From Tabrizicola sp. (lineage in GTDB: Bacteria > Pseudomonadota > Alphaproteobacteria > Rhodobacterales > Rhodobacteraceae): DNA of 64,000 nucleotides. Shown here in pieces: positions 1 to 14,524 of this stretch. The translations under genes and the position numbers were made by a program. How positions within the stretch are numbered: the stretch's first letter is position 1; the number at the start of each line of letters is the position of its first letter. The notes beneath the pieces were generated by a model. It did no database searches. It was not told the DNA's origin and worked only from the letters and a program-made list of their open reading frames with translations. The DNA lies in NCBI RefSeq assembly GCF_016793705.1, contig NZ_JAEULO010000066.1:62001-126000 (forward strand). Reading direction: 5' to 3'.

Positions 1-3000
1 CCACCCTCGCTGCCCGGATCACCCGCCTCCTCTCCGAGATGGCCGCGCATCCCGAGGCCGACCTCGCGGACCTCAGCCCGCTGTCCCAGGCCGAAACACA
101 GGTCTACGCGGGCGCCTTGCATGCCACCGCACGGGACTACGACCGCAGCCTGACCATCCCCGCGGCAATCCTTGCGCAGGCCCGGCGGACCCCCGATGCC
201 GTGGCGGTGATCGCGGGCGAGACGAAGCTCACCTACGCCGACCTCGCCACCCGCGCCGCCCGGATCGCGAACACGCTTCGCAGCATGAACGTCGGCAAGG
301 GAACTCTCGTCGGCCTCGCCTGCCGCCGCTCGACCGACATGGTCGCGGGCGCGCTTGGCATCCAGCTGGCGGGCGCGGCCTATGTCCCGATGGACCCGGC
401 CTACCCCGCCGACCGGCTCGCGCTTTATGCCGAAGATTCCGGCTGCCCCGTCATTCTCACCGAAAGCGCGGTGGCCGAGGCCCTGCCGCAAGGCCCCGCG
501 CACCTCATCCTCGACACCGACCCGCGCCTTGCCGAAGCCGCCACAACCCCGCCGACCGGCCCGACCGCCGAAGACCCGGCCTATGTGATCTACACCTCCG
601 GCTCCACCGGCAGGCCGAAGGGTGTCGTCGTCACCCACCGCAACGCACTGAATTTCTTCGCGGGCATGGACGACGTGCTCGGCACCGACGCGGGCACCTG
701 GCTTGCCGTCACCTCGCTTTCCTTCGACATCTCGGTGCTGGAGCTGTTCTGGACCCTCACCAACGGCTTCACCGTTGTCCTCGCCGACGATGCCGCGCGG
801 GTGCGTCCCTCGGGCGGCGGCAATCCCGGCGTCTCCACGCGGGGGATGGAGTTCTCGGTCTACTACTGGGGCAACGACGACCTGCCCGGCCCCGCGAAAT
901 ACGAGCTTCTCCTCGAAGGCGCGAAATTCGCCGACCAGAACGGCTTCTGCGCCGTCTGGACGCCCGAGCGTCACTTCCACGCCTTCGGCGGCCCCTACCC
1001 CAACCCCTCCGTCACCGGCGCAGCGGCGGCGGCGATCACGAAGAATATCGGTGTGCGCGCGGGCAGCATCGTGGCGCCGCTGCACCATCCCGCCCGCATC
1101 GCCGAGGAATGGGCGATCATCGACAACCTGACCAACGGGCGCGCCGGGATGGCCTTCGCCTCCGGCTGGCAGCCGGACGATTTCGTCCTCCGCCCCGAGA
1201 ACACGCCCCCCGCCAACCGGCAGGCGCTGTTCGATGCGCTCGACCAAGTCCGCCGCCTCTGGCGCGGCGAGGCGGTGGAGTTCCCGAGGAAGGACGGGAC
1301 TCCCTTTGCCGTGAAGACCCAGCCCCGCCCGGTCTCGAAGGAAGTCCAGGCCTGGGTGACGACCGCCGGAAACCCGGAAACCTGGCGCGATGCGGGGAAG
1401 GCGGGGGCCAATGTGCTGACCCACCTCCTCGGCCAGTCCATCGCGGAAGTGGCCGACAAGGTGAAGCTCTACCGCGCGGCATTGGCCGAGGCCGGGCATG
1501 ACCCCAAGCGCCACAAGGTCACGCTGATGCTGCACACCTATCTGGCGGCGGAGCGTGAGACCGCGCGGGAAGTGGCGCGCGAGCCGATGAAGAACTACCT
1601 CCGCTCGGCGGCGGCCCTGATCAAGCAATACGCCTGGGCCTTCCCCGCCTTCAAGAAGCCGCAGGGCGTGGCGAACCCGATGGACATCGACCTCGGCTCG
1701 CTGGCCCCGGATGAGCTGGAGGCGATCCTCGACTTCGCCTTCCTGCGCTACTTCGACGATTCGGGCCTGTTCGGCACCGTGGAAGACGCCGTGAAACGGG
1801 TCGAGGAGTTGAAGGCCATCGACATCGACGAGGTCGCCTGCCTGATCGACTACGGCATCCCGACCGCCGTGGTGCTGGACGGCCTGAAGCCGGTGGCCGA
1901 GGTCCTGCGGCTGACCAATGCCGGGGCTGGCGCGGACGAGACGATGGCAGGCCTGATCCAGCGCCACGGCGTCACGCATCTGCAATGCACCCCCTCGATG
2001 GCCCGGATGCTGGCCGAGGACGACGGCGCCCGCGCTGCCCTCAACGGCCTGACGCGGATGCTGGTCGGCGGCGAGGCCCTGACGGGGCGGCTCGCGGGCG
2101 ATCTCGCCAGCCTCATCGGCACCCCGATCCTGAATATGTATGGTCCGACCGAGACGACGATCTGGTCCTCGGTCGAGACGACGACCGGCGCGGAGGGCGT
2201 GGTCAACATCGGTCAACCCATTGCCAACACGTCGCTTTATGTGCTGGATGACGCGCAGGCCCCGGTCGCCGACGGCCAACCCGGCGAGCTTTGGATCGGC
2301 GGCGAGGGTGTGGCGCAAGGCTATTTCCAGCGCCCCGACCTGACCGCCGACCGCTTCCGCCCCGACCCGTTCGCGGGCGCCGGACGGATGTACCGAACCG
2401 GCGATCTGGTGCGCAAACGCGCCGACGGCAAGCTCGACTACCTCGGCCGCGCTGACTTCCAGGTCAAGATTCGCGGCCACCGGATCGAGCTGGGCGAGAT
2501 CGAGACGGCACTGGAAGCCGCCCCCGGCATCCGGCAGGCGGTGGTCATCGCGCGCGAAGACCAGCCGGGCGACGTGCGCCTCGTGGCCTATGTCACCGCC
2601 GACGGGCCGGTCGACGAACCGGCGCTCAAGGCCCACCTCGCGGTGCATCTGCCCGAGGTCATGGTCCCCGCCCATATCGTCAGACTCGACGCCATGCCCT
2701 TGACGCCGAACGGCAAGGTCGACCGCAAGGCGCTGCCCGCCCCCTTCGCCGCCACCCCGGTCGCGGCGAAGCCGGTCGCTCTGGAAGGCGGGATCGAGGA
2801 GACCATCGCCGCCGTCTGGGCTCGCGTCCTTGGCGTGCCGCAGGTCGGGCGGTCGGACAACTTCTTCACCCTTGGCGGCCATTCGCTTCTGGCGGTGCAG
2901 GCGCATCGCGAGATGAAGGTGGCGCTGAACTCCGACCGGCTGGCGATCACCGACATCTTCCGCTTCCCCGTCGTCTCGGCGCTGGCCGCCCATCTGGGCA

Positions 3001-3134
3001 AGTCGCTGCCTGCCACCGCGTCGGCCCCCGCCGCTGCGCCCACTCCGGCCGCAGAAAGCGCAGCCGACAGCCGGATGGACGCGATGGCCCGGCGCCGGGC
3101 GATGCGCGAGGCGCGGGAGAAGGCGCTGGGATGA
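1..3134 (+). CDS. Nonribosomal peptide synthetase, C-terminal part: adenylation domain split by a luciferase-like monooxygenase, plus carrier domain (5' truncated)
   Basis: The reading frame is open from base 3, so the gene continues left of the window. The first residues (TLAARITRLLSEM...) look like the tail of a condensation domain. Counting from the ATG at 39, the adenylation domain has core motif A3 (YTSGSTGRPKG) near residue 185, A4 (FDISVLE) near 229, A5 (NMYGPTE) near 699, A8 (QVKIRGHRIELGE) near 808 and A10 (NGKVDRKAL) near 891. A carrier domain follows, with GGHS and phosphopantetheine serine 949. Residues about 260-630, between A4 and A5, are a complete FMN-dependent luciferase-like monooxygenase domain of the MupA/Atu3671 type. 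The enzyme should therefore activate, oxidise and tether an amino acid; substrate and product cannot be read from sequence. There is no thioesterase after the carrier. The next gene overlaps by 4 bp. Confidence 0.9.
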   Translation, partial: TLAARITRLLSEMAAHPEADLADLSPLSQAETQVYAGALHATARDYDRSLTIPAAILAQARRTPDAVAVIAGETKLTYADLATRAARIANTLRSMNVGKGTLVGLACRRSTDMVAGALGIQLAGAAYVPMDPAYPADRLALYAEDSGCPVILTESAVAEALPQGPAHLILDTDPRLAEAATTPPTGPTAEDPAYVIYTSGSTGRPKGVVVTHRNALNFFAGMDDVLGTDAGTWLAVTSLSFDISVLELFWTLTNGFTVVLADDAARVRPSGGGNPGVSTRGMEFSVYYWGNDDLPGPAKYELLLEGAKFADQNGFCAVWTPERHFHAFGGPYPNPSVTGAAAAAITKNIGVRAGSIVAPLHHPARIAEEWAIIDNLTNGRAGMAFASGWQPDDFVLRPENTPPANRQALFDALDQVRRLWRGEAVEFPRKDGTPFAVKTQPRPVSKEVQAWVTTAGNPETWRDAGKAGANVLTHLLGQSIAEVADKVKLYRAALAEAGHDPKRHKVTLMLHTYLAAERETAREVAREPMKNYLRSAAALIKQYAWAFPAFKKPQGVANPMDIDLGSLAPDELEAILDFAFLRYFDDSGLFGTVEDAVKRVEELKAIDIDEVACLIDYGIPTAVVLDGLKPVAEVLRLTNAGAGADETMAGLIQRHGVTHLQCTPSMARMLAEDDGARAALNGLTRMLVGGEALTGRLAGDLASLIGTPILNMYGPTETTIWSSVETTTGAEGVVNIGQPIANTSLYVLDDAQAPVADGQPGELWIGGEGVAQGYFQRPDLTADRFRPDPFAGAGRMYRTGDLVRKRADGKLDYLGRADFQVKIRGHRIELGEIETALEAAPGIRQAVVIAREDQPGDVRLVAYVTADGPVDEPALKAHLAVHLPEVMVPAHIVRLDAMPLTPNGKVDRKALPAPFAATPVAAKPVALEGGIEETIAAVWARVLGVPQVGRSDNFFTLGGHSLLAVQAHREMKVALNSDRLAITDIFRFPVVSALAAHLGKSLPATASAPAAAPTPAAESAADSRMDAMARRRAMREAREKALG

Positions 3135-3778
3135 CTGCCGCGACCCCGGCGGTCGAGACGGCGCTCCGCGCGCTCTTCCCTGCCGGGGTCGCTGTAGCCG
3201 CCGAAGCCATCGCCCCGGCCAGTGCTGCCCAGCTCTGGCCCGAGGAACAGTCGGCGATGGCAGGCGCCGTGCCTTCCCGTCTGGCCGAGTTCGCCGCCGG
3301 ACGTACCGCCGCCCGGCGGGCACTGGTCCAGCTTGGCCAGCCCCTCCAGCCCCTGCCGATGGCCCCCGACCGCGCCGCGATCTGGCCGGCGGGGGTCTCC
3401 GGCTCCATCGCCCATGCCGCGGGCTTCGCCATCGCGGTGGCCCGGCATGGCCCCGCGCTTGGTGTCGACATCGAGGACGACACCGCCATCCCCTCCGACC
3501 TCTGGCCCATTCTCTGCGGGCCGGACGAATTGCAGCGGCTGGCCCGCGGCACCGGCCATCAGGTCAAGCGCCTCTTCTGCGCCAAGGAAGCCGTCTTCAA
3601 GGCGCAAGCCCCGGGCAGTCGCGCCATGTTCGGCCATGAAATCCTGTCTGTCACCCTTGCCGGGAACCAGTTCGATGCCCAGTTCCTTGACCATGCCGGG
3701 GCATTCCGGGCCGGACAGATCGTCCGGGGCCGGATCGCCATGGTGCACGGTCTGGTACTGGCAGGGGTGGCGGTGTGA
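3131..3778 (+). CDS. 4'-phosphopantetheinyl transferase (Sfp/EntD superfamily)
   Basis: This 215-residue protein should transfer phosphopantetheine from CoA to the carrier-domain serine of the preceding synthetase. The two superfamily signatures are present: GVDIEDD around residues 111-117, with the Mg-binding Asp113, and the KEAVFK block at 152-157 (FCAKEAVFKA). The EntD-like N-terminal stretch (GRTAARRAL) is also visible. Its start overlaps the synthetase stop (ATGA), and its stop overlaps the next start, so the three genes are one translationally coupled unit. A dedicated activating enzyme beside the synthetase supports a functional secondary-metabolite locus. Family assignment is firm; specificity for this synthetase is inferred from position. 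Confidence 0.88.
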   Translation: MTAATPAVETALRALFPAGVAVAAEAIAPASAAQLWPEEQSAMAGAVPSRLAEFAAGRTAARRALVQLGQPLQPLPMAPDRAAIWPAGVSGSIAHAAGFAIAVARHGPALGVDIEDDTAIPSDLWPILCGPDELQRLARGTGHQVKRLFCAKEAVFKAQAPGSRAMFGHEILSVTLAGNQFDAQFLDHAGAFRAGQIVRGRIAMVHGLVLAGVAV

Positions 3779-4722
3779 CAGTGACGCGGCGGTCGGCCCT
3801 TCTTGCAGGACTTGCGGCGCTGGTCGGCGGGGGCGGGCTCTACGCGCTCCTCCGCTCGCCCTCCGCCGCCTCGGTCCGCGCGCGGCTTGCGGCGACGCAA
3901 CCTGCGCCGACCGGCCCGCTTTCGGTCTTCCACCTCGGCCACAGCCTCGTCAACCGCGACATGCCGGCGATGCTGGCCCAACTCGCCCCCGCCGGGCACC
4001 GCTACGACAGCCAGCTCGGCTGGGGCACCACGCTCCAGGCGCATTGGGGTGACGCGCCGGTCAGCGGCTTCGAGACGGAGAACGCCCACCCCCGCTTCCG
4101 CCCCGCGCACGAGGCGGTGGCCAGCGGCGACTACGATGCCATCGTCCTGACCGAGATGGTCGAGATTCGCGCCTCGATCCGCTGGTACGACAGCCCGGAA
4201 TACCTTGCCCGCTGGGCCGAAAAGGCCCGCGCCGCGCGGCCCGACGTGCGGCTCTACCTCTATGAGACCTGGCATCCGCTGGACGACCCCGAGGGCTGGC
4301 TGACCCGGATCGACCTCGACCACGAACGCTACTGGCTCAGGCAGGTGCTGGGACCGGCCCTGCGCAAGCTGCCGAAGGACACGCCGATCCACCTGATCCC
4401 GGCGGGTCCGGTGCTTGCCACCTTCGTCCGCGAGGTCGAGGGCCGGGGCGGCCTCGGCAATGTGCGCGACCGCACGGACCTTTTCGCCCGCACCGAGGAT
4501 GGCGGGCTGGACGTTATCCACCTCAACGATATCGGCAACTACCTCGTCGCCCTGGTGCATTTCGCCGTGCTCTACCACGCCTCGCCCGTCGGCCTGCCCC
4601 ATGCCCTGAGCCGGGCCGACGGCAGCCCCGCCACGCCCCCCGATCCCGATACCGCGCTGCTCATGCAAGAGATGACGACCCGGGTCGTCGACAGGCTGGG
4701 GCTGTCCGGCATCCGCACCTGA
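3775..4722 (+). CDS. Exported SGNH/GDSL-like hydrolase
   Basis: This 315-residue protein begins with a twin-arginine-like signal (TRRSALLAGLAALVGGGG), so it is probably exported or anchored. Residues 55-58 read GHSL, in the position of the GDSL nucleophile block, and a DVIHLND block at about 246-252 matches the block V Asp/His pair. A triad of Ser57, Asp246 and His249 is therefore plausible. SGNH enzymes cleave or transfer acyl or acetyl esters. It overlaps the phosphopantetheinyl transferase gene by 4 bp and may tailor or hydrolyse the peptide product, or belong to the neighbouring polysaccharide genes. The family match is divergent and no substrate is suggested. Confidence 0.6.
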   Translation: MTVTRRSALLAGLAALVGGGGLYALLRSPSAASVRARLAATQPAPTGPLSVFHLGHSLVNRDMPAMLAQLAPAGHRYDSQLGWGTTLQAHWGDAPVSGFETENAHPRFRPAHEAVASGDYDAIVLTEMVEIRASIRWYDSPEYLARWAEKARAARPDVRLYLYETWHPLDDPEGWLTRIDLDHERYWLRQVLGPALRKLPKDTPIHLIPAGPVLATFVREVEGRGGLGNVRDRTDLFARTEDGGLDVIHLNDIGNYLVALVHFAVLYHASPVGLPHALSRADGSPATPPDPDTALLMQEMTTRVVDRLGLSGIRT

Positions 4723-4889: not shown

Positions 4890-5498
4890 ATGACCATCCT
4901 TCGCCGCCTGGCCGCGATCCTCTTTCTTCTTCCGCTTCTGGCGGCCCCGTCCTGGGCCCAGGATTACCGCGTCCGTCCGGGCGATGTGCTCCAGATCGAG
5001 GTCCTCGAGGATTCGACCCTGAACCGCACCGCGATCGTGCTGCCCGACGGCCAGATTTCGCTGCCGCTCGCCGGATCGGTGCGCGCCGCCGGTCGCAGCC
5101 TTGCGCAGGTCCAGGCCGACCTCGCCAGCCGCCTGGCGCCGAACTTCGCCACCGCGCCGACCGTTTATGTGACGCTCAGTGCACTGGCGGAACGCACGCC
5201 CGCCGCCCCCGCCGCACCGCGTCTGACCGACATCTACGTCCTTGGCGCCGCGAACACACCCGGCAAGGTCGAGGTCAAGCCGGGCGCCACGCTGCTTCAG
5301 GCGCTGGCCCAGGCCGGTGGGGTGACGCCGTTCGCGGCGAAGAAGCGCATCCAGTTGCGCCGGGTCGACAAGTCGGGCGTCGAGAAAGTCTACAAGTTCG
5401 ACCTTGACGCCATCGAACGCGGCGAAGCCGGTGCCGGCGCGACCCGTCTGATGTCCGGCGACGTGATTGTCATTCCGCAGCGCAAACTGTTCGAGTGA
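4890..5498 (+). CDS. Outer-membrane polysaccharide export (OPX) protein, short periplasmic type
   Basis: The 202-residue product has a Sec signal peptide (about residues 1-23, ending SWA-Q). It is followed by a polysaccharide-export domain (YRVRPGDVLQIEVLED, then LPDGQISLPLAG) and one SLBB-type repeat (VLGAANTPGKVEVKPG...) around 115-165. There is no lipobox cysteine, and no long C-terminal helix of the kind that forms the outer-membrane pore in Wza. It therefore looks like the fully periplasmic class of OPX protein that needs a separate barrel, and a barrel protein is encoded 6 bp downstream. The start is supported by AGGGAG eight bases before the ATG. No co-polymerase/tyrosine kinase (Wzc) gene is in the window. 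Confidence 0.87.
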   Translation: MTILRRLAAILFLLPLLAAPSWAQDYRVRPGDVLQIEVLEDSTLNRTAIVLPDGQISLPLAGSVRAAGRSLAQVQADLASRLAPNFATAPTVYVTLSALAERTPAAPAAPRLTDIYVLGAANTPGKVEVKPGATLLQALAQAGGVTPFAAKKRIQLRRVDKSGVEKVYKFDLDAIERGEAGAGATRLMSGDVIVIPQRKLFE

Positions 5499-5504
5499 TC
5501 TGCC

Positions 5505-6839
5505 ATGCGCCAGTCTGGCCTCGCCCTGGGCGGTTTCTGTGCCGTCTGCGCCGCCCTGTCATCCTCTGCCGCACTGGCACAGGACGGCGGGATGCGGATC
5601 ATCTTCGGGCTGGAGAACCGGCTGGAATTCTCGCGCAATGACCGGCTGTCGGTTCCGGCGACCGGCAGCAACATCAGCAATGCGACGCGGCTCTCCTTCG
5701 GCCTGATCAGCAACCGCGAGATCGACCAGCTGGAATTCTCGGCCTCGGGAGCGCTCATCGCCGAGAACGGAACCGACGGTCCGGGAACCGAGTTCACCTT
5801 CGGCGAGGAGGAGGTCACGCTCAGCTACCACCGCGAGGTTCCGGCAGCGGTGTTCGACCTGCGCGCAAGCTACCGCCATGACGATGTCGACGAGTTCGAC
5901 GACGATCTTGCCGGCTTCGATGAAACCGGCACCCGTACCGATTCCCGGATGGAAGCCAGGCTGGAAACCGGCCGCACCTCGTCGATCGGTTTCGCCCTGG
6001 GCGCGGCCTATCAGGCGACCGACTACCAGGACACCACCGACCCGGATCTTGAGGACAGCACCGAAGCCAGTGCCGATCTGGCGGTGATCCTTCATGCCTC
6101 GGAAATCGCCACCGGGCGGATCGGCTTGCGCTACAGCCGGGTCGAGGAAGAGGATGCGGCCGACACCCGCACCGATACGCTGACCACTTATGCGGGGCTC
6201 GACTATTCCCTGAGCGAGCGGCTCGATCTGTCTGCCGAGATCGGCTATGTCGAAAGCGAAACCGAGGAATTCGGCGTGATCGACCGGACGACCGGCCCTG
6301 AACTCAGCCTCGGCCTGACATACGACATGCCGGTGGGTAGTGCTCTCGCCCTGCTTCGCATCACCACTGACGACGATGAGGGCCAGCGCGAAACCTTCGA
6401 GATCGGGCGCGACCTGGAAACCCCCACCGCGACGATTTCCGCCCGGCTCGGCGTCACCCATGCCGACGAGGCCGGAACCGACCTGATCGGCCGTCTCCGG
6501 GTCGACCGTACTCTGCCCGACGGCACGCTGGGCCTGGTCCTGGAACGCCGCACGAGTTACGACGACGAGCCGGTGCTCAACTCGCTGGCCGCGCTGAGCT
6601 GGACCAAGTCGGTGAACGAGCTGTCCTCGATCTCGTTCGGCCTGACCTACGAACAAAGCGACGCCGCGAGCGAGCGGATCGAGCAGGTCTCCTTCGGTGC
6701 AAGCTACCATCGCGAGTTGACGGCGGACTGGAATCTGGACACGGGCGTGGGTTACCGGGTGCGCAATGACGCGGACGGTCACGCGGAATCCCCGACACTG
6801 TTCGTCTCGCTCAGCCGGGACTTCGAGTTCCGGCCCTGA
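5505..6839 (+). CDS. Outer-membrane beta-barrel protein paired with the OPX protein
   Basis: This 444-residue protein has a Sec signal (cleavage after AALA-Q near 25). The body is built of alternating hydrophobic/polar strands separated by acidic turns rich in D, E, T and S. It ends LSRDFEFRP, with aromatic residues near the C-terminus as in barrel proteins. No catalytic motif is visible. It begins six bases after the OPX stop, and a strong terminator follows it, so the pair forms the end of a transcription unit. The likely role is the outer-membrane channel through which the polymer leaves the cell. It resembles the generic putative porin/BBP2 families; the channel role is inferred from the partner. 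Confidence 0.7.
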   Translation: MRQSGLALGGFCAVCAALSSSAALAQDGGMRIIFGLENRLEFSRNDRLSVPATGSNISNATRLSFGLISNREIDQLEFSASGALIAENGTDGPGTEFTFGEEEVTLSYHREVPAAVFDLRASYRHDDVDEFDDDLAGFDETGTRTDSRMEARLETGRTSSIGFALGAAYQATDYQDTTDPDLEDSTEASADLAVILHASEIATGRIGLRYSRVEEEDAADTRTDTLTTYAGLDYSLSERLDLSAEIGYVESETEEFGVIDRTTGPELSLGLTYDMPVGSALALLRITTDDDEGQRETFEIGRDLETPTATISARLGVTHADEAGTDLIGRLRVDRTLPDGTLGLVLERRTSYDDEPVLNSLAALSWTKSVNELSSISFGLTYEQSDAASERIEQVSFGASYHRELTADWNLDTGVGYRVRNDADGHAESPTLFVSLSRDFEFRP

Positions 6840-6884: not shown

Positions 6885-7856
6885 TCAGGCTTTTTTCCCG
6901 CCGCCGAACACCTGCCGCAGCGCATGACCGGTCAGGTCGCGCAGGAAATGCGGCGGTCCGCCGGTGGTGACACCGCGCTGGACCACCCGGCGCGCTTGCC
7001 GGATCATCGCGCCGGCCAGATAGGCCAGCGTGACGCCGATCGCCCGCCCCGTGCCCCCCGCCTTGCGGTAGTACAGCCATCTGCTGTCGAACCAGTAGCC
7101 CGGCACCCGCGTCCAGGCCTTCATTCCCGTCGAGACCGAGCCGATATGCTCCACCCGGCTTTCGCGCACATAATGCGTCGGCCATCCCGCCTCTGCGGCC
7201 CGGCGACAAAGGTCGGTTTCCTCGAAATACAGGAAGAAGGCCTCGTCGAAGGTTCCGACCGAGCGCACCACCCCCTCGCGGATCATCAGGCTGGCCCCGG
7301 CAAGCCAGTCGACCTGCCCGCTGGTTTCGGGCAGGGCCATCCGAACGGTCCGCTTCGCCAGCAACCGGCTGACCGGCCCGGTCAGCGCCGCCGCCTCGAA
7401 CTCGGAGGCCGCCGAAGGGAAGCGGAAACAGGTCGAATGCGGATCGCCGTCGGGGCCGTGGATGTAGCTGCCCGCCAGGCCGACCTTCGGATGCCGCTCC
7501 AGATACTCCATGAGAAGGCGAATCGCATCCGGCGCCGGGAAGGCGTCCGAATTCAGAATGTAGATGTAATCCGGTCGCACGCCCCCCGGCAGGCCTAGCC
7601 GGATGCCGATATTGTTGCCGGCCCCGAAGCCGCCGTTCCGGCCCGACTGGACCACCCGAAACCGGGGCCGGTCCCGCAGGGCCTCGCTCATCCGCTCGAA
7701 GGACCCGTCGCCCGAATCGTTGTCGACCACCACGATCCCGCCCGCGATCCCCTCCATCGCGCGCTCGGCCGCATCGGCCGACTTCAGCGTCATCTCGGCA
7801 GTGCGCCAGTTCAGGATCACCGTCAGCACGGTGGGATTGCGGTCCGCGCCGGTCAT
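6885..7856 (-). CDS. Family 2 glycosyltransferase (rhamnosyltransferase-like)
   Basis: A 323-residue GT-A fold enzyme of the WbbL/rhamnosyltransferase kind. It shows VILNWRTAE near the N-terminus, VVVDNDSGDGS at 42-52, the nucleotide-sugar-binding NSD at 102-104 and an EETD catalytic-base region near 212-215. The C-terminal region is weakly hydrophobic (TLAYLAGAMIRQ). It should add one sugar to a lipid-linked repeat unit at the cytoplasmic membrane. The ATG overlaps the stop of the upstream WecG-type gene (ATGA), so the two are coupled. A longer open frame extends upstream but only mirrors the WecG gene in another frame. The donor sugar is unknown. Confidence 0.88.
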   Translation of the reverse strand: MTGADRNPTVLTVILNWRTAEMTLKSADAAERAMEGIAGGIVVVDNDSGDGSFERMSEALRDRPRFRVVQSGRNGGFGAGNNIGIRLGLPGGVRPDYIYILNSDAFPAPDAIRLLMEYLERHPKVGLAGSYIHGPDGDPHSTCFRFPSAASEFEAAALTGPVSRLLAKRTVRMALPETSGQVDWLAGASLMIREGVVRSVGTFDEAFFLYFEETDLCRRAAEAGWPTHYVRESRVEHIGSVSTGMKAWTRVPGYWFDSRWLYYRKAGGTGRAIGVTLAYLAGAMIRQARRVVQRGVTTGGPPHFLRDLTGHALRQVFGGGKKA

Positions 7857-8626
7857 TTCCGCCCCGCCCGTGCCGCCAGCGCCTGCCCGGCCAGCGAGGG
7901 CATGACCAGCGCGCAATCCAGATAGCGCCGGGCCAGGCGGCGCGGGTTGGTCAGCATCCGCCACAGCCACTCCATCGCGATCTTCCGCACCCAGACCGGC
8001 GCGCGGGTCTGGTGGCCCGCGATGAAATCCAGCCCCGCCCCGATCGACAGGAACCCCAGTTCCGGGTGCCGCGCCAGCCCGCGGGCGGCTAGGCGCTCCT
8101 GCTTCGGCGCCCCTAGCGCCAAGAGGCAGATCCGCGCGCCCGAACCCGCGACCTGATCCAGAGCCGCATCCGCCGCCGCGCCGTCGGGGTCGAAGCCATA
8201 GGGCGGCGCAAGGCAGGCCGCGACCTCCAGCCCCGGATTGGCGGCCTTCAACCGCTCTGCCGCCAGCTCCAGCACCGGCTCGGTCGAGCCAAGAAAGGCC
8301 ACTGGCGTGCCCAGCCGCGCCGCCAGCGCCGCCACCGGCGCGATCAGCTCCGACCCCGGCACCAGGCTCACCGGCCGTCCGGCCAGCCGCGACATCCAGA
8401 CGATCGGATTGCCGTCGGCGACCACATGGCTGTGCGCCCGGTAGGCCCGCAGGAAGGCCGGATCGCGCCGCATCTTCACCACATGGTCCAGGTTCAGCGT
8501 GGCGATGGCAAAGCCCTTCCCCGCGCGCAGACACGCCTCGACATCGGCCAGAAGCGCGGCTTCGGTCGGGAAGTTGACCACGGAAAGCGCATCGAACGCC
8601 GCAGCCGGGGGACTGTCACCCACCAT
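7853..8626 (-). CDS. WecG/TagA/CpsF-family glycosyltransferase (GT26)
   Basis: The 257-residue product shows the family hallmarks in order: TLNLDH at 43-48, ADGNPIVW at 70-77 with the conserved Asp, and GAPKQE at 172-177. Family members transfer N-acetylmannosaminuronate, N-acetylmannosamine or glucose to a lipid-linked sugar, usually as an early step of repeat-unit assembly. The ATG start has GGAGGA five bases upstream, which is why a longer frame starting further out was not used. It forms a two-gene minus-strand unit with the downstream GT2 gene and is divergent from another GT2 gene. Confidence 0.9.
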   Translation of the reverse strand: MVGDSPPAAAFDALSVVNFPTEAALLADVEACLRAGKGFAIATLNLDHVVKMRRDPAFLRAYRAHSHVVADGNPIVWMSRLAGRPVSLVPGSELIAPVAALAARLGTPVAFLGSTEPVLELAAERLKAANPGLEVAACLAPPYGFDPDGAAADAALDQVAGSGARICLLALGAPKQERLAARGLARHPELGFLSIGAGLDFIAGHQTRAPVWVRKIAMEWLWRMLTNPRRLARRYLDCALVMPSLAGQALAARAGRK

Positions 8627-8745: not shown

Positions 8746-9693
8746 GTGGCATTGGCGCGGAAGTCTTTCGGAAATCCGCCGGATCAGCCGGTTTGTGCAC
8801 CGATGCTGTCCATCGTCGTGCCGACCTTCCGGCGCGAGGCCTACCTGCCGCCTCTGTTCGCCGCTGTGGGGGAACAGGTGGCGGCTCTGCCTGATCCCGT
8901 TGAACTGCTGTTGGTCGACAATTCCCCGGAAGCCTCGGCCAAGGGCGTCCCCGCACCCGGTTTCGTCCGTTACCTCCACGAACCCCGCACCGGCGTGGCC
9001 CATGCCCGCAACCGGGGCGTGGCCGAGGCGCGGGGAAGCCATGTCATCTTCCTCGACGATGATGAACTTCCCGCCCCCGGCTGGCTTGCCGCCTTCGCCG
9101 CCGTTGCCCACCGGGGTGCCCGCGCCGCATTCGGCGCCGTCGAGCCGCGCTTCGAATCCTCGCCTCCCCCCGCCCTCCTCACACCCCTCGACCGCATCTT
9201 CAGCCGCCGCCTGCCCGCCGCCATCGGCGCCGAGGTGCAATCGCTCCGCGCCTATCTCGGCTCGGGCAATTCGATGTTCGCCCGGACAACTCTGGCCCTG
9301 GTCGACCCGCCCTTCGACACATCGTTCAATGCGGGCGGCGAGGATGTCTGGCTTTTCCGCCAACTCGACGACACCCACCGCATCCCGATGATCTGGTGCC
9401 CCGAGGCCTTGGTCCACGAACTCGTCCCGCCCCGCCGCGCGACGATGGATTTCCTGCGGCAGCGGCGGTTCAGCGACGGCCAGCTGCGCTGCCTGGTGGA
9501 AAGCGATGCCGGGGGCCTGCGCGCCCTGGCACGCGTCGCGCTCTGGATGGCGGTCGGCGCGGCGCAGCTGGTGATCTTCGGCCTGGCGGCGATCGTGACC
9601 CGGCCCTTCTCCGAACCCCGCTCGGTCCGCCTCCAGCTGGCCGCAGTCGGGGGGGCCGGCAAGCTTCTCTGGTGGCGACGGCGCAAGGAATGA
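8746..9693 (+). CDS. Family 2 glycosyltransferase with C-terminal membrane helix
   Basis: A GT2 enzyme of 315 residues from the GTG at 8746 (AGGG upstream), or 296 from the ATG at 8803. The second start would give the classic beginning MLSIVVPTFRRE. The nucleotide-sugar site appears as LLLVDNSPE and FLDDDELPAPGW (DDD at 104-106). GGEDVWLF near 205 matches the catalytic acidic region. A hydrophobic segment (about 255-280) probably ties it to the inner membrane. The stop overlaps the next gene region (GGAATGACC), so the two are co-transcribed. It should extend the exopolysaccharide repeat unit; specificity is not readable. Confidence 0.87.
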   Translation: MALARKSFGNPPDQPVCAPMLSIVVPTFRREAYLPPLFAAVGEQVAALPDPVELLLVDNSPEASAKGVPAPGFVRYLHEPRTGVAHARNRGVAEARGSHVIFLDDDELPAPGWLAAFAAVAHRGARAAFGAVEPRFESSPPPALLTPLDRIFSRRLPAAIGAEVQSLRAYLGSGNSMFARTTLALVDPPFDTSFNAGGEDVWLFRQLDDTHRIPMIWCPEALVHELVPPRRATMDFLRQRRFSDGQLRCLVESDAGGLRALARVALWMAVGAAQLVIFGLAAIVTRPFSEPRSVRLQLAAVGGAGKLLWWRRRKE

Positions 9694-9695
9694 CC

Positions 9696-10928
9696 ATGGA
9701 CAACGGCCCCATCGCCTATCTGACCGGCGACTATCCCAAGGTCTCGCACACCTTCATCCTGCGCGAGGTCGAGGCGGTCCGCGCCAGCGGTGTCCGGGTC
9801 CTCACCTGCTCGATCCGCCAGCCGCCGGAGGCAGAGTTCAAGGGCCAGGAGGAACTCCGCGCCCGGTCCGAGACCTTCTACGTCAAGACGGCGGCGAAGA
9901 ACCCGGCCCGGCTTCTGGCCGCGCATGGCCGGGCGATCCTGCGCAGTCCCGGCACCTGGGCCAGGACGCTCGCGCTGGCCGTCCGGATGCGCGCACCCGG
10001 CCTCAAGGCTTTGATCTGGCAGCTCTTCTACTTCCTCGAAGCCGGGGTTCTGGCCGACCACCTGCGCCGCAACCACGCCCGCCACCTGCACAACCATTTC
10101 GGCAATTCCAGCTGTTCGGTCGCCGTCCTTGCCGCCGAACTGGCGGGCATCCCCTTCAGCTTCACCGAGCACGGCCCCGCCATCTTCTTCGAGGTCGACC
10201 GCTGGGCCCTGCCGGAAAAGATCGCTCGCGCCGCCTTCGTGGTGGCAATCACCCATTTCTGCCGCTCGCAACTGATGCTGTTCTCCAGGCCGGAACACTG
10301 GAGCAAGATCACCATCGTCCATTGCGGCGTCGATCCTGCCGCCTACCGCCGTGACCCCGGCGGCAATGGCAAGCGCGTGGCCTTCGTCGGCAGGCTCGAC
10401 CCGGTGAAGGGTGCGCTGCTCCTGGTCGAGGCGATGGCCACCGTCCTGAAAGCCCACCCCGATGCACAGCTCACCCTTGCCGGCGATGGCCCCGCCCGCA
10501 CCGGGGCCGAGGCGAGGGCCAAGGAGCTTAGGATCGACAGAGCAGTCCGTTTCGCAGGCTTCATGACCCAGGGCCAGGTCGCCGACCTTCTGGCGAATTC
10601 CGACATGCTGGTGCTCCCCTCCTTCGCCGAAGGCCTGCCCGTCGTCTACATGGAGGCGCTGGCCTCCCGCATCCCGGTCGTCGCCAGCCGCGTCGCAGGG
10701 GTGCAGGAACTGGTCGAGGATGGCGTCACCGGCTACACCGTGCCGCCCGGCGATGTGGCGACGTTGGCCGACCGGATGATCCGGCTGATGGATGATCCCG
10801 CCACCGCCCGGACAATGGGCGAGGCCGGGCGCAAGGCGGTCGAAGCCGGGTTCGACATCCGGGCCGAGGGTGCCCGGCTGGCAGAAATCTTCACGAAGGG
10901 CGGACCGGGCGGGCGGCTCCGGCTCTGA
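9696..10928 (+). CDS. Family 4 glycosyltransferase (WcaL/colanic-acid type)
   Basis: This 410-residue retaining GT-B enzyme starts YLTGDYPKVSHTFILREV, typical of the WcaL/AmsK-like group. It has an HLHNHFG segment in the N-terminal lobe and, in the C-terminal lobe, VGRLDPVKG, AGDGPART and the donor-binding E-x7-E motif (E312 to E320 in EGLPVVYME). The ATG at 9696 lies six bases after AAGGA. The ATG at 9690 overlaps the previous stop and is the alternative. It follows the GT2 gene in one operon and should add a hexose to the growing lipid-linked oligosaccharide. Confidence 0.9.
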   Translation: MDNGPIAYLTGDYPKVSHTFILREVEAVRASGVRVLTCSIRQPPEAEFKGQEELRARSETFYVKTAAKNPARLLAAHGRAILRSPGTWARTLALAVRMRAPGLKALIWQLFYFLEAGVLADHLRRNHARHLHNHFGNSSCSVAVLAAELAGIPFSFTEHGPAIFFEVDRWALPEKIARAAFVVAITHFCRSQLMLFSRPEHWSKITIVHCGVDPAAYRRDPGGNGKRVAFVGRLDPVKGALLLVEAMATVLKAHPDAQLTLAGDGPARTGAEARAKELRIDRAVRFAGFMTQGQVADLLANSDMLVLPSFAEGLPVVYMEALASRIPVVASRVAGVQELVEDGVTGYTVPPGDVATLADRMIRLMDDPATARTMGEAGRKAVEAGFDIRAEGARLAEIFTKGGPGGRLRL

Positions 10929-10934
10929 TTCCGG

Positions 10935-11855
10935 TCAGCTGTCCGCGAAGCGGACCGGCTTCACTTCGGGCAAGGCCGCCAGCAGGGCGGCTTCCAACCC
11001 GTCCAGGAACTCGAACCGCTTGCGATACATCGACCGCTTGTTCGGCTTGATCGTGGCTTCGTCGCGCCGCTCGGGCGACATCGGCAGCTCGAAGAAATCG
11101 GCACCGATCGCCACCCCGCCCCGGTCGGCCCAGATCCCGTCATAATCCTGCGTGCTGCTCTTGCCCCCGCCGAAATAGGCGTGCCGGTGGTGCCGCGCCG
11201 CGTCGCTGACCCCGTAAAGCCGGGCTACGCCGATCTGGCGCAACAGCATCTTCAGCGCTTCGAGCAGGAAGTCGCGCGGGCGCAAGCCGTGCAGGACCTT
11301 GGTCAGCGTGCGATAGGTTTCCAGCATGTCGTCGCGGTTCCGGCCCTGGATGCCGCCGATCCAGGCGGTCAGCTGGCCGTCGGGCTCGCGCCGCAGCGAG
11401 AAGGCGATGGAAAAGGCGCGGAAACTGTCGATGAACAGGTTCAGCACCAGCCCGCCTTCGCGCAGGAACCAGATCGGTTGATCCAGCACCAGCCGCAGTC
11501 CCGGCACGACCTCGCCCAGGTCGACCAGCACCAGCCGCTCCTCGCAGTCGAAGGGAAAGGGCGGGCCAAGCGTGTCGATCACCGTGTAATGCGCGATGAT
11601 ACGGGCCAGGCGCTCCTCCGCCTCGAACGAGGCCGAGAGGTAGGGCCAGAGCAGCGCGCCGATCAGTTCGGGCCGCTGGCGCATGATGCGCTCCAGCGCC
11701 GTGCCCGGCGGCGGCGCCAGCAGGGCTTGCGTCAGCGGATAGGCGCGCAGACCCGCCAAAACCATCCGGCCCTGCCGGGCAAGCGCAGAAGGCCCGTTGC
11801 CGGGAAAGGTGCGCCGCGCAGCCGATACCAGGGCCGACCGTCCCGTCAGGGCCAT
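10935..11855 (-). CDS. VirK/YbjX family protein (DUF535)
   Basis: The 306-residue product matches the VirK/YbjX (DUF535) family. It has an N-terminal region with FEAEERLARIIAHY, a central FIGGIQG-like block (WIGGIQGRN), a GVSDAARHHRHAYF block and a C-terminal SYDxxW-like block (DYDGIWADRGG). The FELPM and KRSMYRKR segments near the end also fit. Members are linked to envelope stress resistance and virulence in enterobacteria, but no biochemical activity is established. It is encoded on the minus strand, 15 bp downstream of a GT2 gene, so it probably belongs to the polysaccharide locus. No signal peptide is evident. Confidence 0.8.
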   Translation of the reverse strand: MALTGRSALVSAARRTFPGNGPSALARQGRMVLAGLRAYPLTQALLAPPPGTALERIMRQRPELIGALLWPYLSASFEAEERLARIIAHYTVIDTLGPPFPFDCEERLVLVDLGEVVPGLRLVLDQPIWFLREGGLVLNLFIDSFRAFSIAFSLRREPDGQLTAWIGGIQGRNRDDMLETYRTLTKVLHGLRPRDFLLEALKMLLRQIGVARLYGVSDAARHHRHAYFGGGKSSTQDYDGIWADRGGVAIGADFFELPMSPERRDEATIKPNKRSMYRKRFEFLDGLEAALLAALPEVKPVRFADS

Positions 11856-11870: not shown

Positions 11871-12842
11871 TCACTTGTATTCGATCAGCGCCGCACGACG
11901 GTGCAAGAGCCGGTTCAGCCAGAATTGCACGACACCCATGGCTTCGGGAAGTTTTCCCAGCGTCAGGAAGAAGGCGCGCTCCAGACCAAGCCGCCGCCGA
12001 AGCCGCAGCACCTGCGCCGGATAGGCCGCGAAGACCAGCGCCGCCCAGGGGGTGAAGATCATGCCCAGAAGGCCCGCCAGCGGCAGGCCAAGCCCCCAGA
12101 GCAGCGCCCGCCGGGTTTCGGCAACCCAGTGGAACTCCGGCGCCGTGCCATGCATCGCCGCCCCTTCGGCAAAGGCGAATCCCGCCCGCCGCGTGCGCTT
12201 CCACCATTGCCCGATCCGCTGCATCGCCGCGTCGTGCAGCGTCATCTCAGCGTCCAGCCGCCAGACCTGCCATCCGGCCCGGCGCAGGCGCAGGCAAAGC
12301 TCCGGCTCCTCACCCGCGATCAACGCCGGGTCGTAGCCGCCGACCTGCCGCACCGCCGCACTGCGCATCAGCGCATCGCCGCCGCAGGCCTTTGCCTCGC
12401 CCGGAGGCGTATCCCATTCGGCATCGCAAAGCCGGTTCCAGACCGAGGCCTCGGGATGCATCTCACGCCGCCTGCCGCAGACGACGGCGACCTTGGGATG
12501 CGCGACCAGATAGGCCCGCGCCACCGGCAGCCAGCCCGGCTGCACCCGGCAATCGCCGTCGACGAACTGCACGTACTCGGGCGCGCCTGCCTCCATCAGC
12601 CGCGCAAAGCCCGCATTGCGCGCCCGCGCCGCAGTGAAGGGCACCGTCCCGTCCAGCTGAACCACCACCGCCCCGGCCGCAGTCGCCGCGGCCACGCTGC
12701 CGTCAGTCGAACCGGAATCGACATAGACCAGGGGGCGCGCGCCCAGGGCAAGCGACTCGAGGCAGGCCACCAGCCTTGCACCTTCGTTGCGGCCGATGAC
12801 CACCGCGCCAAGGCTGCCCGCCGCCAAATCCTGCTGTGTCAA
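11871..12842 (-). CDS. Family 2 glycosyltransferase with C-terminal membrane helices
   Basis: A GT2 enzyme beginning LGAVVIGRNEG, then VYVDSGSTDGS, FVDGDCRVQPGW (the DxD-like site) and GEEPELCLRLRRAGW. It ends with two or three hydrophobic segments (LLWGLGLPLAGLLGM, then FTPWAALVFAAYPA). The TTG at 12842, preceded by GGAAGCGCGGA, gives 323 residues and fits the family N-terminus. The in-frame ATG at 12962 would add 40 residues without homology-like features. It should work at the inner membrane in repeat-unit synthesis. It is upstream of the VirK/YbjX gene and divergent from the polymerase gene. Confidence 0.83.
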   Translation of the reverse strand: MTQQDLAAGSLGAVVIGRNEGARLVACLESLALGARPLVYVDSGSTDGSVAAATAAGAVVVQLDGTVPFTAARARNAGFARLMEAGAPEYVQFVDGDCRVQPGWLPVARAYLVAHPKVAVVCGRRREMHPEASVWNRLCDAEWDTPPGEAKACGGDALMRSAAVRQVGGYDPALIAGEEPELCLRLRRAGWQVWRLDAEMTLHDAAMQRIGQWWKRTRRAGFAFAEGAAMHGTAPEFHWVAETRRALLWGLGLPLAGLLGMIFTPWAALVFAAYPAQVLRLRRRLGLERAFFLTLGKLPEAMGVVQFWLNRLLHRRAALIEYK

Positions 12843-13021
12843 TCCGCGCTTCCAAATTTCCGATCCATGCCCTTGCAAAAAAGCACAGATTCCGCCGGCC
12901 TCCAAGGGAAAGCGGGACCGGACCTTGGCACAATCCGGACGGATCGTGCACGGGGAATGCATTTTCCTCGACCGCCGAACCCGCTACAACCGGATCAGCC
13001 CCTTTCCGCAAGGCCGTCGGT

Positions 13022-14524
13022 ATGCCGAACATCATTGCCTATCTGGCGCTTTTCATCTGGCCCATCGTCGCCATCCTGCTGTTCCGACTCCTGCCGCTCC
13101 AGAAGGCCCTGGTCTGGACGATCATCGGCGGCTACCTGCTGTTGCCTACCGCCACCTACATCAAGTTCCCGATGGTGCCGCCCATCGACAAGACCACGGT
13201 GACAAGCGTTCCGGCGCTGATCCTTTGCCTGCTGATGGCGCCGCGACAGCTGCCGAACCCGGCACCCCTGGCGCGAACCGGGCGGCATGTCTTCTTGCTG
13301 CTGTTCCTGGTCGTGATCACCTCGCCGGTGCTGACCGTGCTGCAAAACACCGAGCCGGTGATCAATGGCCGCGTCTTCATCCCCGGCCTGCGCCTGTACG
13401 ACGCGATGAGCCTGATCTCGGAGCTTCTGGTGTCGCTCATCCCGCTCTGGCTTGGTCTGCGCTACCTGAACTCGCGCGACGGGCTGCGCACCATCCTTCA
13501 GGTGCTGGCGATCGGCGGCCTGGCCTACACCATCCCGGTCCTTTTCGAGGTGCGCTTCAGCCCACAGCTGCACACCTGGATCTATGGCTTCTTTCCGCAC
13601 AGCTTCCTGCAACACATCCGCGAGGACGGCTTCCGACCGGTGGTCTTCCTGTCGCACGGGCTGCTGGTCGGCATCTATCTCTGCATCGCGTCTCTCGCCG
13701 CCGCCACGCTCTTCCGCGAGGCCCGGCGAGAGGGGCGCCCGGCAGTCTGGTGGTTCCTGTCGACGGTCTGGCTTCTGGGGGTGCTGTCCGTGTCGAAGAA
13801 CTTCGGCGCGATGACCATCGCCCTGGTGCTGACGGCGGCGGTCCTCCTGCTCGGACGCCGACCGCAACTTATCATCGGGCTGGCGATCGCGACCGTGGTC
13901 ATATTCTACCCGATCCTGCGCGGAGCGGGCTGGATTCCGGTCGATGCCGTTTACGAATACGTCCAGTCGATCAATCCCGACCGCGCCGACTCGCTGAAGT
14001 ACCGGCTGGACAACGAAGACGCCGTGCTGGCCCGCGCCAGCGAAAAGCCGCTGCTCGGCTGGGGAAGCTGGGGGCGCGAACTCATCTACGATCCCGGCAC
14101 CGGCAGGTTGCTCAGCATCGTCGACGGCATCTGGGTGCGCGTGATTGGCAGCTTTGGCTGGATCGGCTACATCGGCCGCTTCGGACTCTTGACCGCGCCG
14201 ATCCTGCTCTTCGCCCTCAGACGCCGGTCGGTGGGCGATTCCTTCCTTCCCATCGGGCTGATCATCACGCTCGGCGCCACCTTGATCGACCTCCTGCCGA
14301 ATTCGGGGCTGGTCAACTATGTCTGGCTCATGGCCGGTGCCGTGGCAGGCCATGCTCTGTGGTGGCGGGACCCTGACACGGAAGCGGCGGCCCAGGGCGA
14401 CCCTGCCGGGCAGGTCGCGACGCAGCCCTTTGCCGCCCCGCCCCGCCCCGCCTGGCTGATGCCTGACACCGGACCGACGGGCAGGCGCGTCCCCCGCCCG
14501 CATGACACGAGCCGTCGCCGCTGA
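13022..14524 (+). CDS. O-antigen polymerase/ligase-like multi-spanning membrane protein
   Basis: The 500-residue protein has about ten to twelve hydrophobic segments, beginning IIAYLALFIWPIVAILLF, with a long loop in the middle (about 185-215) and a soluble Pro-rich C-tail. This topology is that of Wzy polymerases and WaaL-type ligases (Wzy_C superfamily). A segment near 345 (EKPLLGWGSWGREL) resembles the G-x-G-W-G stretch often seen in that superfamily. It should join undecaprenyl-linked repeat units in the periplasm. The ATG has AAGG eight bases upstream. It stands alone on the plus strand between minus-strand genes. Confidence 0.75.
   Translation: MPNIIAYLALFIWPIVAILLFRLLPLQKALVWTIIGGYLLLPTATYIKFPMVPPIDKTTVTSVPALILCLLMAPRQLPNPAPLARTGRHVFLLLFLVVITSPVLTVLQNTEPVINGRVFIPGLRLYDAMSLISELLVSLIPLWLGLRYLNSRDGLRTILQVLAIGGLAYTIPVLFEVRFSPQLHTWIYGFFPHSFLQHIREDGFRPVVFLSHGLLVGIYLCIASLAAATLFREARREGRPAVWWFLSTVWLLGVLSVSKNFGAMTIALVLTAAVLLLGRRPQLIIGLAIATVVIFYPILRGAGWIPVDAVYEYVQSINPDRADSLKYRLDNEDAVLARASEKPLLGWGSWGRELIYDPGTGRLLSIVDGIWVRVIGSFGWIGYIGRFGLLTAPILLFALRRRSVGDSFLPIGLIITLGATLIDLLPNSGLVNYVWLMAGAVAGHALWWRDPDTEAAAQGDPAGQVATQPFAAPPRPAWLMPDTGPTGRRVPRPHDTSRRR

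What the first reader, a model, noticed from the sequence alone, without database searches (positions are those of the whole stretch)
1..3134. NRPS adenylation domain interrupted by a luciferase-like monooxygenase
The sequence shows core motifs A3-A4, then about 370 residues of an FMN-dependent luciferase-like domain (from MEFSVYYWG near residue 270 to about 630), then A5-A10 and a carrier domain. Interrupted A domains are known, and LLM domains of the MupA/Atu3671 type are known in NRPS/PKS loci, but what this one oxidises is unclear. The insertion lies between A4 and A5, close to the substrate pocket, so oxidation could occur on the bound aminoacyl group. The product is unknown.
Basis: partly seen in the sequence, partly recalled or inferred. 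Interest (0 to 1): 0.7.

Follow-up and report, generated by a model that had tools for sequence, protein, structure and literature searches.

The report
Oxidising glycine synthetase in polysaccharide loci
A bacterial enzyme that appears to activate, formylate and oxidise glycine on a carrier arm is paired with a small polyketide synthase and sits inside slime-polysaccharide gene clusters of many bacteria, hinting that an assembly-line product is made as part of a polysaccharide pathway.

Summary
In detail: window 3-3134 is the 3' part of an NRPS gene whose adenylation (A) domain is split between motifs A4 and A5 by a MupA/Atu3671-type luciferase-like monooxygenase (LLM; TIGR04020, 468.7 bits). 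The whole (1509 aa, starting 1.4 kb before the window) is formyltransferase - C-terminal half of a condensation domain - A(LLM)A - carrier - conserved basic tail. An A4-A5 monooxygenase insertion is known from myxothiazol/melithiazol, where it alpha-hydroxylates glycine. Here the specificity residues are nearly invariant (DILQ[MLF]GMIWK, glycine-type by recall).

New is the setting. The protein is paired with a KS-AT-KR-DH-ACP-TE polyketide synthase (79 of 80 relatives), usually with a GT2 glycosyltransferase and a phosphopantetheinyl transferase, inside exopolysaccharide (EPS) loci: 67 of 68 relatives of at least 20 kb had two or more EPS-type hits. Two other formyl-type loci had none. A family sample found it in 106 of 295 genomes. 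Of six A4-A5 modules without a formyltransferase, five had no EPS-type hit.

Best reading: an initiation module makes carrier-bound N-formyl-alpha-hydroxyglycine (or a breakdown product), the PKS extends it once, and the product serves the polysaccharide pathway. Chemistry and EPS role are inferred.

The parts
3..3134 (+). 3' two thirds (residues 467-1509) of the F-C(half)-A-LLM-A-T synthetase; the gene starts 1.4 kb before the window (C33:60605)
3..117 (+). end of the C-terminal half of a condensation domain (residues about 313-505; most of it lies before the window)
   Evidence: HHalign probability 97.2, E 4.5e-11 against C domains of other NRPSs, only the part after HHxxxDG; no Pfam Condensation match
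132..803 (+). A domain, first part, motifs up to A4 (YTSGSTG, SFDISVLELF)
837..1913 (+). luciferase-like monooxygenase insert (TIGR04020 MupA/Atu3671 family)
   Evidence: (PuwE 6ket E 1.8e-100)
1914..2759 (+). A domain, second part, A5 (NMYGPTE) to A10 (PNGKVDRK)
2802..2996 (+). peptidyl carrier domain (GGHSL)
3072..3131 (+). conserved basic C-terminal tail (RMDAMARRRAMR...), docking-like
   Evidence: loose pattern, set after seeing the sequences, in 79 of 79 close proteins incl. own, 32 of 48 further LLM-NRPS loci, 1 of 669 other ORFs
3131..3778 (+). Sfp/EntD-type 4'-phosphopantetheinyl transferase, overlaps the end of the NRPS gene by 4 bases
   Evidence: next to the NRPS in 73 of 80 relatives
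3775..4722 (+). SGNH/GDSL-like protein of unknown role (GHSL motif by eye; no Pfam or NCBIfam match)
   Evidence: relatives in 34 of 80 loci
4890..5498 (+). Wza-like exopolysaccharide export protein (Poly_export over cut-off; TIGR03027 below cut-off)
5505..6839 (+). weak match to a PEP-CTERM-system outer-membrane protein (TIGR03016, below cut-off)
6885..7856 (-). GT2 glycosyltransferase; in 63 of 80 relatives its homologue lies between PKS and NRPS
7853..8626 (-). WecG/TagA/CpsF glycosyltransferase
9690..10928 (+). GT4 glycosyltransferase
12836..14524 (+). O-antigen ligase/polymerase-like protein (Wzy_C, below cut-off)

Best explanation
The gene encodes a stand-alone NRPS initiation module. 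Its A domain loads glycine onto its own carrier. The fused formyltransferase formylates the amine. The LLM, set in the A4-A5 loop, hydroxylates the alpha carbon with FMNH2 and O2. The loaded unit (N-formyl-alpha-hydroxyglycyl, or glyoxylyl if the carbinolamide collapses) passes to the adjacent KS-AT-KR-DH-ACP-TE polyketide synthase, which adds one C2 unit, reduces and dehydrates it and releases or transfers it. The neighbouring PPTase primes both carriers. The product is used in the surrounding exopolysaccharide pathway, most likely as an acyl decoration. Shown here: domain content, one continuous A domain, conserved motifs, loss of the catalytic half of the C domain, the conserved gene set and the EPS setting. 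Inferred: glycine, formylation, site of hydroxylation, order NRPS before PKS, one extension, and use on a polysaccharide.
For: Domains and insert. Specificity residues DILQ[MLF]GMIWK in 77 of 79 aligned proteins, the other two differing by an X and by I to V; DILQ.GM[IV]WK in 24 of 27 further LLM-NRPSs. Formyltransferase: Pfam hits, NFH and D129 invariant in 46 aligned rows, model pLDDT 96.2 with Fmt and ArnA as best folds. Half C domain without HHxxxDG: no condensation site is left, so the module should start a chain. The TE sits on the PKS, so the chain should end there; KR Tyr, DH His and Asp, ACP Ser and TE Ser are kept in 94 of 94 aligned PKSs, TE His in 91 with 3 gaps (the PKS rows were picked by their KS motif plus an AT or TE motif, so KS, AT and in part TE are kept by selection). 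Conserved basic tail after the carrier. Pairing: PKS 79 of 80, PPTase 73 of 80, GT2 between PKS and NRPS 63 of 80. EPS setting: 67 of 68 loci of at least 20 kb with two or more EPS-type hits; annotated polysaccharide genes around the cluster in Ruegeria, Paracoccus, Aminobacter, Deinococcus, Shinella, Parasedimentitalea. Precedent for glycine alpha-hydroxylation by an a4-a5 insert: PMC10204066, PMC11342130 (passages).
Against: No product is known and no biochemistry was done. Two formyl-type loci lack EPS-type genes and sit beside NRPS/PKS genes: Aliiroseovarius L128 and G307/L140. One relative (L136) pairs the same kind of PKS with a full C domain and an A domain that carries both the LLM and a methyltransferase, with no formyltransferase, so formylation is not part of every version. 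In 5 of 20 sampled family members only one EPS-type hit was found in 20 kb. The tail pattern is absent from the Hyphomicrobiales and Deinococcus loci tested except L136, whose order is not known. The KR-before-DH order of the PKS is unusual by recall, and the PKS could be iterative.
Confidence: 0.5

Rival explanations
1. Myxothiazol-like cleavage: the LLM hydroxylates glycine only to break it, leaving a glyoxylyl-S-carrier starter (plus ammonia or formamide) that the PKS turns into a small aldehyde acid such as 4-oxobut-2-enoate, used to acylate or cross-link the polysaccharide.
For: Same insertion site as in the myxothiazol and melithiazol modules, where the hydroxylated glycine breaks down and leaves glyoxylate on the carrier (PMC11342130, PMC10204066, passages).
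Against: A conserved formyltransferase would be pointless if the nitrogen were discarded. In solanimycin B the carbinolamide survives (PMC10204066, passage).
Confidence: 0.2
2. The LLM oxidises the nitrogen rather than carbon: N-hydroxyglycyl-S-carrier is then formylated to an N-formyl-N-hydroxyglycyl (hadacidin-type) hydroxamate starter, giving a metal-binding product.
For: A formyltransferase and an oxygenase acting on the same glycine would yield exactly this unit; formylation of hydroxylamines in hydroxamate siderophores is recalled. Not excluded by any search.
Against: The reactions reported or proposed for LLMs of this kind in the passages seen are not N-hydroxylations but mostly carbon hydroxylations: PuwE 2-hydroxylation (PMC4219810), glycine alpha carbon, palmerolide and others (PMC8739492).
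Confidence: 0.12
3. The PKS-NRPS makes an ordinary diffusible or glycosylated small molecule; polysaccharide loci are only a favoured landing site for it.
For: Two formyl-type loci lie outside EPS loci. Five of six A4-A5 modules without a formyltransferase (L131, L132, L133, L135, L138) had no EPS-type hit. EPS loci are variable regions (general knowledge).
Against: The GT2 gene lies between PKS and NRPS in 63 of 80 loci, and the link recurs in Rhodobacterales, Hyphomicrobiales, Hydrogenophaga and Deinococcus with differently built EPS loci.
Confidence: 0.25
4. The PKS works iteratively and makes a lipid or polyene anchor for the polysaccharide, with the glycine-derived unit as starter or cap.
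For: The PKS has KR and DH but no ER match and a single ACP; a PKS-like enzyme in capsule synthesis (RkpA) is recalled.
Against: The domain set fits a single extension equally well, and no similarity to such systems was tested.
Confidence: 0.1

Closest known systems
Glycine modules of myxothiazol and melithiazol biosynthesis (MtaG, MelG by recall)
   Same: Flavin monooxygenase domain inserted between a4 and a5 of a glycine A domain (PMC10204066, PMC11342130, passages)
   Different: Those act on a chain brought from upstream and release it by cleaving glycine; this one has a formyltransferase plus half a C domain, no TE of its own, and looks like a starter in an EPS locus
LgrA initiation module (linear gramicidin)
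   Same: Formyltransferase in front of A-T, initiation of a chain (recalled); best PDB sequence match overall
   Different: No LLM insert and no half C domain (recalled); here the A domain looks glycine-type
PuwE OX domain (puwainaphycin; PDB 6ket)
   Same: Closest solved LLM: E 1.8e-100, 44% identity, TMt 0.89
   Different: Sits between PKS and NRPS modules and is proposed to take part in making a 3-amino-2-hydroxy fatty acyl chain, not to act on glycine (PMC4219810, passages)
SolF (solanimycin)
   Same: Flavin monooxygenase domain in an A domain predicted to use glycine, alpha-hydroxyglycine retained in solanimycin B
   Different: Inserted between a8 and a9 (PMC10204066, passage)
XrtA/PEP-CTERM-type exopolysaccharide loci
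   Same: Tyrosine kinase, chain-length determinant, ATPase and export protein of that kind next to the cluster
   Different: All four below the curated cut-offs

Membership tests
TIGR04020 MupA/Atu3671 LLM subfamily | Score over the curated cut-off across the model | tested here: met
   468.7 vs 244.45 bits, model 1-340 of 341
Interrupted A domain, A4-A5 (myxothiazol) type | Insert between motifs A4 and A5 of one continuous A domain | tested here: met
   A4 at 706, A5 at 1177, LLM between; excised halves align end to end
Interrupted A domain, A4-A5 (myxothiazol) type | Glycine-specific A domain | tested here: inconclusive
   residues DILQLGMIWK; that such a code means glycine is recalled, and a literature look-up of a near code found nothing; the best PDB A-domain match is the second A domain of LgrA, a glycine module by recall
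Interrupted A domain, A4-A5 (myxothiazol) type | Alpha-hydroxylation of carrier-bound glycine | not testable with these tools
   needs biochemistry
Myxothiazol-type terminating module | Working C domain upstream and a releasing TE in the same protein (features by recall; passages name the TE step) | tested here: not met
   only the C-terminal half of a C domain, no TE match
Formylating initiation module (LgrA type) | Formyltransferase with N-x-H...D residues, fused to A-T, no working C domain | tested here: met
   NFH and D129 invariant in 46 rows, Fmt/ArnA fold, half C domain only
Formylating initiation module (LgrA type) | Formylates its own aminoacyl-S-carrier | not testable with these tools
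   needs biochemistry
XrtA/PEP-CTERM exopolysaccharide system | TIGR03007/03015/03018/03027 members over cut-off | tested here: not met
   159.4 of 278.85, 249.6 of 324.5, 107.8 of 230.65, 108.3 of 180 bits; relatives, not members
XrtA/PEP-CTERM exopolysaccharide system | Exosortase gene in the locus | not tested
   not searched in the window genome; xrtD is annotated near the Ruegeria conchae cluster

The most novel reading that the evidence does not exclude
A whole class of bacterial exopolysaccharides carries a substituent built by a two-protein assembly line from N-formylated, oxidised glycine plus one polyketide extension. Depending on where the LLM puts the oxygen it is an N-acyl carbinolamide or aldehyde that can cross-link the matrix, or a hadacidin-type hydroxamate that binds metal. 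This would join modular PKS-NRPS chemistry to polysaccharide modification.
Probability: 0.3. Interest if true: 0.85.

Novelty: new variant of a known kind. Interest (0 to 1): 0.62.

Why it matters
The LLM-interrupted glycine A domain is a known kind. Its fusion to a formyltransferase standing where the catalytic half of a condensation domain would be, and its recurrent pairing with a one-module PKS and a glycosyltransferase in EPS loci, were not found in print by the searches made here (open-access library only). A family sample found it in 106 of 295 genomes, so it may matter for the surfaces of an abundant bacterial family, and it offers a compact system for studying how LLM domains oxidise carrier-bound glycine.

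Tried and rejected
Chance or mis-assembly: rejected, since 78 of 80 relatives have full-length proteins of 1487-1577 aa and the other two (L018, L030) end at a contig end. Two separate A domains: rejected. LLM as a decayed passenger: unlikely, since many LLM columns are invariant in 46 rows. A hidden full C domain: rejected, as only the part after HHxxxDG aligns; the controls LLM vs C and remnant vs LLM gave probabilities 0.2 and 0.7. Stand-alone TIGR04020 LLM elsewhere in this genome (L145) as a relevant duplicate: it lies beside an AMP-binding-like gene, has no EPS-type hit, and falls outside the formyl-type group. The strict tail pattern was found in only 55 of 79 proteins; the looser pattern, chosen after looking at the misses, gave 79 of 79, so it is descriptive only. 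A literature check of a near glycine code returned nothing; some searches listed mostly unrelated papers. Prior notices of such genes: PMC4062626 names Inhi_1972 (PKS) and Inhi_1974 (NRPS) of Phaeobacter inhibens (passages), and PMC8273931 reports by antiSMASH a hybrid PKS/NRPS cluster without known product on plasmid pCP157_02 of Paracoccus marcusii (passages), the plasmid that holds L122; whether either is this operon was not checked.
Full report
What is there. The window begins inside a gene. The open frame 3-3134 (+) runs off the left edge; the whole gene runs from G000:C33:60605 and encodes 1509 aa. Pfam and NCBIfam give, in order, Formyl_trans_N (60-165), Formyl_trans_C (196-274), AMP-binding first part (523-731), Bac_luciferase/TIGR04020 (749-1099), AMP-binding second part (from 1109), AMP-binding_C and PP-binding. 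With the LLM left out, the A domain aligns end to end with solved A domains. The AlphaFold model of the window part (mean pLDDT 82.9, pTM 0.56, so the relative placement of domains is not reliable) matches complete A domains, though with large rmsd, and for the insert the PuwE monooxygenase domain 6ket.

The model of this region, made for the relative L011, has mean pLDDT 96.2, and its best folds are methionyl-tRNA formyltransferase and the ArnA formyltransferase domain. N91, F92, H93 and D129 (N, H and D being catalytic in this fold by recall) are invariant in 46 aligned rows. Residues of about 313-505 align to the C-terminal half of condensation domains (HHalign probability 97.2, E 4.5e-11), without the half that carries HHxxxDG; two control comparisons gave probabilities under 1. 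So the protein looks like a C-A(LLM)-T elongation module in which a formyltransferase has taken the place of the catalytic half of the C domain. In Paracoccus and Deinococcus the formyltransferase is a separate gene next to the LLM-NRPS. A relative from another family (L136) has a full Condensation domain, the LLM at the same site, and in addition a methyltransferase inside the A domain's C-terminal part, so a twice interrupted A domain, beside a PKS with the same KS-AT-KR-DH-ACP-TE set: there the glycine nitrogen would be acylated or methylated instead of formylated.

Substrate. The ten specificity positions read DILQLGMIWK in the window protein. Of 79 aligned proteins, 77 read DILQ[MLF]GMIWK, one has an X and one has V for I. 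Of 27 further LLM-interrupted NRPSs, including types without formyltransferase from Streptomyces, Nostoc and Burkholderia glumae, 24 read DILQ.GM[IV]WK (two loci of the intended set, L138 and L142, were not picked up by the script). The meaning glycine is recalled. The literature states that the monooxygenase of the myxothiazol and melithiazol clusters lies between a4 and a5 and hydroxylates the alpha carbon of glycine (PMC10204066 and PMC11342130, passages). Inserted methylases act after loading (PMC11355689, passage); I take the same for the LLM.

Partner genes. Directly upstream lies a 2108-aa PKS: KS-AT-KR-DH-ACP-TE. KR Tyr, DH His and Asp, ACP Ser and TE Ser are kept in 94 of 94 aligned PKSs and TE His in 91, with 3 gaps; these rows were picked by KS and AT or TE motifs, so only KR, DH and ACP are unselected. 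Downstream are a PPTase and an SGNH-like protein. In the best 80 of 511 relatives found in genome contigs the PKS is present in 79, the PPTase follows in 73, and a GT2 glycosyltransferase lies between PKS and NRPS in 63; in the window the GT2 homologue lies downstream instead. After the carrier, a variable linker ends in a basic tail matching a loose pattern in 79 of 79 close proteins, 32 of 48 further loci (some without formyltransferase) and 1 of 669 other ORFs. I read it as a docking element towards the PKS; this is inference.

Polysaccharide setting. The neighbours in and just before the window are a chain-length determinant, tyrosine kinase and ATPase of the XrtA kind (below curated cut-offs), a Wza-like protein, glycosyltransferases, a weak Wzy-like match and an MsbA/PglK-like transporter. 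Of the 80 relatives, 68 loci are at least 20 kb long; 67 of these have two or more EPS-type tblastn hits. Polysaccharide genes are annotated around the cluster in Ruegeria, Paracoccus, Aminobacter, Deinococcus, Shinella and Parasedimentitalea; all six of these loci supplied part of the EPS query set, so their own counts are not independent. Two formyl-type loci had no EPS-type hit (L128, L140). Two more, L141 and L142, and the methyltransferase type L136 had one each in 20 kb, with several such hits in the flanking stretches (L155, L157-L159; L156 had none). Ten other LLM loci (L131-L135, L137, L138, L143-L145; five of them A4-A5 modules without formyltransferase, the rest stand-alone or PKS-linked LLMs) and two 20-kb stretches of the window's far part had none. 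A sample of the family found the N-terminal region in 106 of 295 genomes. Of these 106, I chose 20 by hand, spread down the ranking: 20 of 20 have NRPS and PKS, 19 have the GT2 between them, 19 have a PPTase hit, and 15 have two or more EPS-type hits counting that GT2.

History. In an LLM tree of 49 rows the formyl-type domains group together (94/89, just short of the tool's strong mark; L127 belongs here although the script's label says otherwise, its formyltransferase motif being shown), with the main EPS group at 100/100. The two Hydrogenophaga rows fall inside the Rhodobacterales, which suggests horizontal transfer. Several non-formyl branches are long and their places unsure.

Mechanism. 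I propose: glycine is loaded, formylated and alpha-hydroxylated on the carrier, then extended once by the PKS and released or transferred by its TE, for use in the polysaccharide pathway. The order of formylation and hydroxylation, the fate of the carbinolamide (kept, or collapsed to glyoxylyl), and the final use are not shown. Rivals are myxothiazol-like cleavage, nitrogen hydroxylation giving a hadacidin-type hydroxamate, an ordinary diffusible product, and a lipid anchor.

Verdict. As an interrupted A domain it is a known kind; the formyltransferase/half-C architecture and the conserved EPS setting make it a new variant. No paper describing that combination was seen in eight searches of the open-access library. 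I read listings, and passages only of eight papers (PMC8739492, PMC11355689, PMC11342130, PMC10204066, PMC8273931, PMC9396620, PMC4219810, PMC4062626).

Noticed in passing
L145:7951-9168 (G000:C28): The same genome has a stand-alone TIGR04020 LLM (451.2 bits) next to an AMP-binding-like gene; a stand-alone LLM in G197 (L143) is also next to one, while in G130 (L144) the AMP-binding-like gene is some 8 kb away.
   Followed up: partly
L136:7041-12620 (G335): An A domain that looks interrupted twice, by an LLM between A4 and A5 and by a methyltransferase in its C-terminal part, with a full C domain and the same kind of PKS beside it; sugar-nucleotide genes lie upstream in L155.
   Followed up: partly
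L131 (Streptomyces sp. NBC_01343 plasmid): An LLM-interrupted NRPS is followed by a flavin reductase gene and lies near LysW/LysX-type genes; the reductase may supply the LLM with reduced flavin.
   Followed up: no
L128 and L140: Formyl-type LLM-NRPS next to large NRPS/PKS genes without EPS-type genes, in L128 beside nitrous oxide reductase genes: the module also serves other pathways.
   Followed up: partly
window 3775-4722: SGNH-like protein without a Pfam or NCBIfam match, with relatives in 34 of 80 loci; could be an esterase or acyltransferase of the pathway.
   Followed up: no
L041 and L047 (Hydrogenophaga); also L037, L042-L044, L049: The operon occurs in a betaproteobacterial genus; the two rows put in the LLM tree nest inside the Rhodobacterales, pointing to horizontal transfer.
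   Followed up: partly
window 10935-11855: DUF535 protein in the EPS locus; a DUF535 gene also lies near the Shinella cluster (L125), but only 1 of 80 loci had a relative in range.
   Followed up: no
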